A DNA stretch of 64,000 nucleotides. It comes from Hydrogenimonas sp. Lineage in GTDB: Bacteria > Campylobacterota > Campylobacteria > Campylobacterales > Hydrogenimonadaceae. A program made the position numbers and the translations under genes. The stretch is taken from positions 620,001-684,000 of the forward strand of contig AP019005.1 in assembly GCA_003945285.1 (NCBI GenBank). Direction: 5' to 3'. Within the stretch, counting starts at the first letter, position 1. Each line of letters begins with the position of its first letter. This document shows positions 4,479 through 55,182 of the stretch, one piece after another. The notes below the pieces were generated by a model. The model did not search any database, had not been told where the DNA came from, and saw only the letters and a program-made list of their open reading frames with translations.

Positions 4479-4641
4479 CTGACCTTGTGCAAAATTTGAC
4501 AGCCCCGGGAATATCGTAAAAAAACGCCTTCGCCAGTAAGGGCGCCGGAGGCGCCGGAGGCCTTTAGAGGTGCCCTATAGATATTTTGCGGCGCCACGCA
4601 GGGCTAAGCCAGTTCGGCGTGCGGATTTTGCGTAAGGTCAG
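4479..4641 (-). repeat. Repeat family 3, copy A (163 bp, 17-bp inverted ends)
   Basis: The ends CTGACCTTGTGCAAAAT (4479-4495) and ATTTTGCGTAAGGTCAG (4625-4641) are inverted repeats matching at 15 of 17 positions. The right end continues inward as a reverse complement of the left end of the copy at 54985. The interior (cggggctg, then a T7 run with acgatat) matches the copy ending at 17068. It is in the opposite orientation to those two. It ends only 24 bases before the fmt start codon. Confidence 0.82.
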
Positions 4642-16748: not shown

Positions 16749-16770
16749 TTTCCAAAGTCAATAACTGATA

Positions 16771-16881
16771 TTACGCAAAGCTTGAGCGAAGCCCAAGCTT
16801 TGGCGGGGACTGACCGTCCCCTGCACCCCCTGAAGCTACGAAATCGCAGATTTCGAAATGATGTTACGCAAAAAGCGTAAC
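16771..16881 (-). repeat. Repeat family 2, copy 1 (inverted)
   Basis: About 111 bp made of hairpins in series: AAGCTTGAGC...GCCCAAGCTT, GGGGACTGACCGTCCCC, CGAAATCGCAGATTTCG, and the end palindrome GTTACGCAAAAAGCGTAAC (16863-16881). It is the reverse orientation of the two copies at 23330-23567. The stems are the same in all three copies while the loops differ. It sits 22 bases after the tolB stop and touches a family 3 element. Confidence 0.85.
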
Positions 16882-17068
16882 ATCAGTCAATAATCTCCGC
16901 ATGCCGAGCGGGATTTGTCCTGCGGGACACCGCAGAACATCCATAGGTGGCCTTTATATGTAGCATGAAAACCGCTGATGCCTTCGGTGCCCTGAGGGGC
17001 AAGCGCGGTTTTTTTAACGATATTTTTCCGCTCAAATCCCGGGGCTGACTGATTTTGTGCAAGGTCAG
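16877..17068 (+). repeat. Repeat family 3, copy B
   Basis: The right end ATTTTGTGCAAGGTCAG (17052-17068) matches the outer end of copy A (4479). Near the left end, CCGCATGCCGAGCGGGATTT matches copy C (55002 on). The outermost bases of the left end appear to have been lost where it meets the family 2 element. Together the two elements fill 16771-17068 of the tolB-pal gap. Confidence 0.8.
16968..17016 (+). terminator. Terminator-like hairpin inside the family 3 element
   Basis: AAAACCGC (16968-16975) pairs perfectly with GCGGTTTT (17005-17012), and the T run continues to 17015. The inner part TGCCTTCGG...GAGGGGCA adds further pairing. It would stop transcription leaving tolB. The same AAACC...GGTTTT plan is seen in copy C at about 55050-55104. 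Confidence 0.5.
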
Positions 17069-54931: not shown

Positions 54932-54984
54932 GAGGTTTTGAAACTATCGGCGACAGAGAGTCAACGGTAATTCAAAATTAAACG

Positions 54985-55112
54985 CTGACCTTACGCAAAA
55001 TCCGCACGCCGAGCGGGATTTACCCTTCGGGGTGCGGCAACGAGGCTGAAACCGCCAATTCCTGCGGAACCCTTCGGGCACGAGAGGTTTTCTTAACTGC
55101 CGCTCAAATCGC
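54985..55112 (+). repeat. Repeat family 3, copy C
   Basis: Begins CTGACCTTACGCAAAAT (54985-55001), exactly the reverse complement of the right end of copy A, then CCGCACGCCGAGCGGGATTT as in copy B. The interior AAACC...GGTTTTC stem and CCGCTCAAATC follow. The right end is lost. The whole block is bracketed by ACGGTAATTCAAAA (54964-54977) and its inverse TTTTGAATTACCGT (55157-55170). Confidence 0.8.
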
Positions 55113-55182
55113 AATGCCGGCAGATTTCGCCGACGCGTCTTTTCATCTATCTTGAGTTTTGAATTACCGTGCAGAGGGTTTT

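What the first reader, a model, noticed from the sequence alone, without database searches (positions are those of the whole stretch)
4479..4641. Third element family with ends CTGACCTT(R)CRCAAAAT
Copy A has 17-bp inverted ends matching at 15 positions. Copies B (to 17068) and C (from 54985) each keep one end. Interiors are diverged but share an A-run/T-run stem and acgatat. One copy is inverted relative to the others, which argues for transposition over local duplication.
Basis: seen in the sequence. Interest (0 to 1): 0.6.

Follow-up and report, generated by a model that had tools for sequence, protein, structure and literature searches.

The report
Tiny transposons sharing a folded core
The repeat is a real mobile DNA element of about 165 bases present in dozens of copies in this bacterium, and its folded centre also occurs in related bacteria inside tiny transposons with quite different ends, as if one passenger kept changing vehicles.

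Summary
The end motif (up to 2 mismatches) occurs 122 times in the 2.19-Mb genome, control 2. Of 45 paired copies I kept 39, 27 of them 161-167 bp long. Sixteen of 39 have exact 7- or 8-bp target duplications, against 0.035 exact 7-mers expected from swapped flanks. The element is not found at the copy-A locus in 15 of 15 other congeneric genomes with a full-length neighbouring gene. It is a transposase-less MITE. Duplication length and target bias fit the ISPepr1 subgroup of IS4; its end fits 6 of 8 fixed positions. No such transposase was found in this genome.

The surprise is the interior. Its ~50-nt apex, often with the surrounding ~120-nt fold, recurs in other Campylobacterota inside MITEs with different ends (seven kinds by my count) and different duplications (7-8, 8 or 10 bp). 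The fold is supported by covariation (290 two-sided cells against 90 shuffled). In Nautiliaceae the same interior sits inside exchanged or nested ends. MITE-hood is ordinary; a conserved folded core that outlives its ends is not. Copy A itself is degenerate: no duplication, no core-model hit.

The parts
4479..4641 (-). Copy A, complete 163-bp element, degenerate in its centre
   Evidence: no target duplication; not a core-model hit at E <= 0.001
4479..4495 (+). Copy A terminal inverted repeat, one end (CTGACCTTGTGCAAAAT)
4625..4641 (-). Copy A terminal inverted repeat, other end (CTGACCTTACGCAAAAT)
16906..17068 (+). Copy B, remnant: structured core plus right end; left end lost
   Evidence: core model hit 16906-17051, 74 bits; end 17052-17068
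17052..17068 (-). Copy B terminal inverted repeat
54964..55170 (+). Copy C, hybrid element: outer ends of a second end type (ACGGTAATTCAAAA / TTTTGAATTACCGT), first-family left arm inside, shared core
54985..55001 (+). First-family end inside copy C
55011..55123 (+). Structured core of copy C
   Evidence: core model R1, 91.5 bits

Best explanation
The three window copies belong to a MITE family of about 165 bp with 17-bp inverted ends, cut-and-pasted in trans into TTA...A-like sites between genes, most likely by an IS4-family transposase of the ISPepr1 subgroup that this genome no longer carries or never carried. The interior is a separate, older module: a folded core of about 50 nt (apex) to 120 nt that in Campylobacterota lies inside MITEs with about seven different kinds of ends. 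The ends were changed over time by recombination or deletion inside the core and by nesting of one element in another followed by loss of the old ends, so the core is a passenger that keeps changing its mobilising transposase. Shown: ends, copy number, target duplications, absence at the copy-A locus in congeners, shared covarying core, different ends and duplication lengths, nested and hybrid copies. Inferred: the ISPepr1-type transposase as mover, the order of end swaps, and any advantage the core gives.
For: Ends 122 times, control 2; 45 pairs, 39 kept; 13 exact 7-bp and 3 exact 8-bp duplications of 39, control mean 0.035 exact 7-mers and none of 8; 15 of 15 other congeners with full-length fmt lack it upstream of fmt. 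Core: 69 model hits in this genome; 11 of 298 class genomes, this one included, strict filters; covariation score 0.381 against 0.122 shuffled (0 of 500 as high) and 0.032-0.108 slid. Different ends: CAGGGCTGTTTCATGCT with exact 10-bp duplications in 5 of the 5 copies tried; CATACCTTTCTACACAT, exact 8 bp in 1 of 3; GGYACTGACTAAAT, exact 8 bp in 1 of the 2 copies where the script found both ends, of 15 tried (two more, L168 and L174, by eye); CTKATRTTACGC, exact 7 or 8 bp in 3 of 5 found, of 7 tried. L172 and L174 align over positions 19-189 of 216 and 34-205 of 215 with different ends; L157 holds a decayed CAGGG-type element inside CATACC ends. Mover: of 21 loci examined with relatives of an IS4-like transposase, 13 have both ends (1476-1564 bp), and 5 of the 11 with both flanks readable have exact 7- or 8-bp duplications. 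Their ends, such as CTTAACTTTCGCA, fit 8 or 7 of the 8 fixed positions of the published ISPepr1 end YT-AA-YTT---A, whose repeats are 7-8 bp with AT-rich targets (PMC2266710, passages read); the MITE end fits 6 of 8.
Against: No transposase of this kind in this genome: PF01609 0 of 7 core-bearing genomes; ISPepr1-like protein not matched in G000 at E <= 1e-10. The MITE end departs from the ISPepr1 end at 2 of 8 fixed positions. Copy A lacks a duplication and a recognisable core. Fifteen of 39 copies show no duplication by the classes. Covariation within helices could partly come from quasi-palindrome correction rather than selection. For several end types (ACGGTAATTC, ATACCAATCC, TCTGAAAAACTG) duplications were not counted, so for them mobility of the outer unit is inferred, and end types were told apart by eye. 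All stretches found to carry the core have Campylobacterota titles, so a single origin with vertical inheritance plus end turnover fits as well as repeated capture.
Confidence: 0.8

Rival explanations
1. Plain MITE family, nothing more: all relatives descend from one MITE whose ends diverged beyond recognition while the palindromic centre stayed by chance or by correction.
For: Certain members are in Campylobacterota only; some ends share a TTACGC-like motif.
Against: Duplication lengths differ by end type (10 against 7-8), which points to different transposases; ends change abruptly beside an aligned interior; nested and hybrid copies exist. Ends are normally the more conserved part of a MITE (general knowledge).
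Confidence: 0.15
2. The core is a functional RNA or bidirectional transcription terminator kept by the host, with mobile ends incidental.
For: A-run/stem/T-run on both strands; covarying helices and conserved unpaired bases.
Against: In the core, G-U pairs are no commoner than A-C mismatches (35 against 45 in 94 distinct rows; 6 against 10 in 29 hand-picked lineage representatives without the two outer pairs), so no RNA strand is clearly favoured. In the 17-bp ends G-U is 9 and A-C 19; over 20-base arms it is 9 against 72, because of two positions just inside the ends, so the opposite strand would pair somewhat better. No clear bias in orientation (11 same, 8 opposite in tandem contexts) or location (19 tandem, 12 divergent, 5 convergent of 36; gaps in the window 39, 10, 11; rough ORF caller). 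No Rfam match above threshold in the stretches searched.
Confidence: 0.15
3. Inherited regulatory DNA at fixed loci, not mobile.
For: Most placed copies lie between genes.
Against: Absent upstream of fmt in 15 of 15 other congeners; target duplications.
Confidence: 0.02
4. The core is itself a mobile unit that inserts into the centre of ready-made palindromic MITEs, rather than being captured by new ends.
For: Coreless palindromes with the same kind of end exist (e.g. L258).
Against: In Nautiliaceae the aligned part reaches beyond the core, through shared arms, up to the exchanged ends, so there the change is outside, not at the core border.
Confidence: 0.1

Closest known systems
MITEs in general (non-autonomous derivatives of IS elements)
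   Same: Short, no gene, inverted ends, target duplications, dispersed copies between genes.
   Different: Here the interior is shared over several bacterial families while the ends differ.
ISPepr1 subgroup of the IS4 family (PMC2266710, passages read)
   Same: End motif at 6 of 8 fixed positions, 7-8 bp duplications, AT-rich target.
   Different: No transposase; no autonomous partner found in this genome; no evidence that the interior derives from such an IS.
TIMEs, Tn3-derived mosaic miniature elements (PMC4133298, abstract and outline read)
   Same: Non-autonomous; can carry different core modules between like ends.
   Different: TIMEs keep the ends and change the core; here the core stays and the ends change.
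REP/REPIN elements (search listings only; otherwise recalled)
   Same: Palindromic, extragenic, many copies.
   Different: These elements have 17-bp inverted ends and target duplications; a RAYT link was not tested.

Membership tests
MITE | terminal inverted repeats | tested here: met
MITE | target-site duplication | tested here: met
   16 of 39 exact 7/8-mers, control mean 0.035 exact 7-mers; not met by copy A itself
MITE | short, many dispersed copies, no room for a transposase | tested here: met
   14 of 39 are 165 bp, 27 of 39 are 161-167 bp, longest 435 bp; dispersal
ISPepr1-mobilised element | ends YT-AA-YTT---A | tested here: inconclusive
   6 of 8 fixed positions in CTGACCTTACGCA (table)
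ISPepr1-mobilised element | 7-8 bp direct repeats, AT-rich target | tested here: met
   table and text
ISPepr1-mobilised element | cognate transposase in the same genome | tested here: not met
Rfam RNA family | match above gathering score | tested here: not met
   window: 0; L109 and L081 at relaxed threshold: three hits below gathering score, none over the core
structured RNA | covarying helices | tested here: met
   (relatedness not removed)
structured RNA | one strand favoured by G-U pairs | tested here: not met
   core; the ends lean slightly to the opposite strand
REP/REPIN | RAYT transposase and GTAG/CGTC-type tag | not tested
   no search made
integron attC | R and L boxes, integrase | not tested
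   considered from memory only

The most novel reading that the evidence does not exclude
The folded core is the true persistent unit: a DNA-level module that repeatedly recruits new transposon ends (7-8-, 8- and 10-bp-duplication types), so that it survives the loss of each transposase, a parasite of MITE families whose folded single strand or cruciform helps its own mobilisation.
Probability: 0.35. Interest if true: 0.8.

Novelty: new variant of a known kind. Interest (0 to 1): 0.6.

Why it matters
MITEs are usually defined by their ends and by one parent IS. A core that is shared over several families of Campylobacterota while ends and duplication lengths change would mean that end capture is a route for small elements to outlive their transposases, and it gives a sequence set on which that can be tested. 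It also supplies a folded motif without an Rfam match in the stretches tested.

Tried and rejected
Transposase hunt: PF01609 in seven core-bearing genomes, 0 of 7. PF12762 gave 1 of 11, in G034, and its locus shows none of the ACTGACTAAAT-type motifs sought. PF01609 in 17 genomes with CTGATGTTACGCA ends: 6 of 17 matched; of 21 loci returned I examined 12, and only the G228 remnant L292 had an inverted repeat like the ends. The 787-bp pair of ends in G228 enclosed an ORF that I read by eye as RNase HII, not a transposase. The 10-kb interval between two unpaired ends in this genome showed no ORF that I recognised as a transposase (by eye). Viral contigs with the exact end: two hits inside ORFs, taken as chance. 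Plasmids and phages: no match.

RNA or terminator function: no strand signal in the core and no clear orientation bias. In one search three of 39 copies could not be placed because a called ORF overlapped them, and three more carry an overlap flag; the caller is crude and these may be false starts.

Rows dropped: 6 of 45 paired ends with alignment score under 85 were left out (ends). One search reports 91 stretches; the table gave 80, and searched these: 35 of 80 pass E <= 0.05, all with Campylobacterota titles. Of the 45 that fail, twelve from one Campylobacterales MAG (S143_45) and three from another (356-284) carry the same apex by eye; none of the other 30 has a Campylobacterota title (one is titled only 'bacterium'). 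For one search I gave the model 98 sources, leaving out many redundant copies from this genome. The 29 representatives and the copies tried were picked by hand; both ends were not found for 13 of 15 GGYACTGACTAAAT and 2 of 7 CTKATRTTACGC copies.

Control (a) does not allow for relatedness, and alignment A2 was fitted to the structure; the slid versions (control b) score 0.032-0.108 against 0.381. In one search six fmt loci were read on the wrong strand; one search repeats the test with the right strand.

Papers: nine listings (two of them empty) held no paper that I recognised as about this element. PMC2266710 and PMC8618304 were seen in passages (the second was irrelevant), PMC4133298 as abstract and outline. 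I make no claim beyond these searches that it is unpublished.

Full report
What is there. Copy A (4479-4641), copy B (to 17068) and copy C (from 54985) carry the stated ends. The window lies at 620001-684000 of a 2,193,435-base single-contig genome. Searching it with copy A gives 45 BLAST matches, some of them pieces of one copy; the end motif with up to 2 mismatches gives 60 forward and 62 reverse places, against 0 and 2 for the reversed pattern (the list of places is capped). From stretches around these places I paired ends into 45 elements, of which 39 resemble the family well; 14 of 39 are 165 bp and 27 of 39 are 161-167 bp, with two of 434-435 bp.

Mobility. In 13 of 39 copies the flanks repeat exactly over 7 bp, in 3 more over exactly 8 bp, and in 7 more at 6 of 7 positions; pairing the left flank of one copy with the right flank of another gives 0.035 exact 7-mers on average, at most 1 in 1000 shuffles. 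The exact 7-mers begin with T in 13 of 13, have A in third place in 10 of 13 and end in A in 10 of 13. Copy A shows no duplication, nor do 14 others. The fmt gene next to copy A was found full-length in 16 of 18 genomes of the genus, this one included; none of the other 15 has anything like the element in the 600 bases upstream (scores 20-29 against 326). In G005 (L228), and less clearly in G001 (L230), blocks of the left flank align without it; an exact empty site was not shown. Of 39 copies 36 could be placed with a rough ORF caller: 19 between tandem, 12 between divergent and 5 between convergent genes (window gaps: 39, 10, 11), and 11 against 8 for orientation in tandem contexts.

The mover. 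Elements found through a transposase remnant in G228 and its relatives in 23 of 397 genomes of the class end in CTTAACTTTCGCA, CTCAACTTTCGCA or, in G158, CTCATCTTTCGCA/CTGAGCTTTCGCA. Of 21 loci examined 13 have both ends, 1476-1564 bp apart, and 5 of 11 with both flanks readable have exact 7- or 8-bp duplications. The remnant's best NCBIfam match is transpos_IS4_4, 114 bits, under its cut-off of 250; the protein is partial. The published ISPepr1 description (ends YT-AA-YTT---A, 1500-1600 bp, 7-8 bp repeats, preference for AT-rich targets; passages) fits these elements at 7 or 8 of 8 fixed positions and the MITE ends at 6 of 8. No such gene was found in this genome. That an ISPepr1-type enzyme moves the family is therefore inferred.

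The core. A search of 60 genomes with a clean copy matched 7, this one included; two other species of the genus gave 14 matches each (a cap), limited to the interior (within positions 17-146 of 165), and their ends differ. An alignment of 22 cores has 21 consensus pairs, 9 with changes on both sides. The model R1 matches 11 of 298 genomes of the class, this one included, under strict filters and 69 places in this genome (150 of 735 candidates scored). A loose core pattern scanned over one genome for each of 84,980 species gave 91 stretches, 80 of them listed; of these 80, 35 pass the model, all with Campylobacterota titles (Hydrogenimonas, Nautiliaceae, Nitratiruptor and unnamed Campylobacterales or Campylobacterota), and fifteen more from two Campylobacterales MAGs carry the same apex though the model misses them. 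On 100 aligned matches (94 distinct) 90.8% of cells are paired against 75.1% shuffled and 32.6-58.3% slid; 290 cells change on both sides against 90 shuffled. Among 29 hand-picked lineage representatives, leaving out the two outermost pairs, 493 cells are Watson-Crick, 6 G-U, 10 A-C and 16 other. In the core no strand is favoured, which fits a DNA-level palindrome, hairpin correction or a two-way RNA better than a one-strand RNA. In the 17-bp ends A-C mismatches are 19 and G-U 9, and two positions just inside them are A-C in 32 and 21 of 39 copies, so the opposite strand would pair a little further there.

Different ends, one core. Ends seen around the core, told apart by eye: CTGACCTTACGCAAAAT in this genome, with the like CTKATRTTACGC in MAGs L_MaxBin.107 and 355-202; ACGGTAATTCAAAA in this genome; ATACCAATCC in G007; GGYACTGACTAAATA, CAGGGCTGTTTCATGCT and CATACCTTTCTACACAT in Nautiliaceae; TCTGAAAAACTGTT-like in S143_45 and others. 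Exact duplications were scored for four types: 10 bp in 5 of 5 CAGGG copies tried; 8 bp in 1 of 3 CATACC copies; 8 bp in 1 of 2 GGYACTGACTAAAT copies whose ends the script found, of 15 tried; 7 or 8 bp in 3 of 5 CTKATRTTACGC copies found, of 7 tried. The CAGGG element L172 and the ACTGACTAAATA element L174 align from 19 to 189 (of 216) and from 34 to 205 (of 215), so that only the ends differ; L157 holds a decayed CAGGG element inside CATACC ends with an exact 8-bp duplication. In this genome copy C and the element in L061 (near 1519) are hybrids of the two end types. The simplest reading is insertion of one element into another followed by recombination or deletion in the shared core, and capture of whole elements inside new ends.

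Limits. Relatedness is not removed from the covariation figures. Copy A, the finding's own copy, is one of the poorest members: ends nearly intact, centre rearranged, no duplication, no core-model hit. The genus name of the window was not established. Absence at the orthologous site was tested at one locus only.

Verdict. As a mobile element this is an ordinary MITE family. The shared core under changing ends is the interesting part.

Noticed in passing
window 16765-16886: Another small palindromic element (CTGATATTACGCAAA ... GCGTAACATCAG) with an exact 7-bp duplication TCAATAA, next to copy B. Similar elements with a like interior (GGGGAC..GTCCCC, CCCCCTAAAGCTACGAAA) occur, by eye, in other Campylobacterota genera.
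   Followed up: partly
L020 1497-1931 and L059 1539-1972: Two copies carry a near-identical insert of about 270 bp in the core, and copy A and others carry a short piece (TATAGGGCACCTCTAAAGGCC), which looks like a further nested element with GGGCACCTCT ends.
   Followed up: no
L168 and L184: ACTGACTAAATA-type elements appear to lie inside larger inverted repeats resembling TACCAATCCCCAAA, similar to the ATACCAATCC ends of G007.
   Followed up: no
G210 contigs C17, C36, C47, C51, C66: Five contigs begin within about 300 bases of a CTGAYSTTACGCAC end, perhaps assembly breaks at repeats.
   Followed up: no
L154, L166, L167, L173, L180, L183, L193, L199, L203, L204, L205, L210: Twelve contigs of one Campylobacterales MAG (S143_45) carry a very uniform core apex that model R1 misses, so the family is wider than the model counts.
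   Followed up: partly
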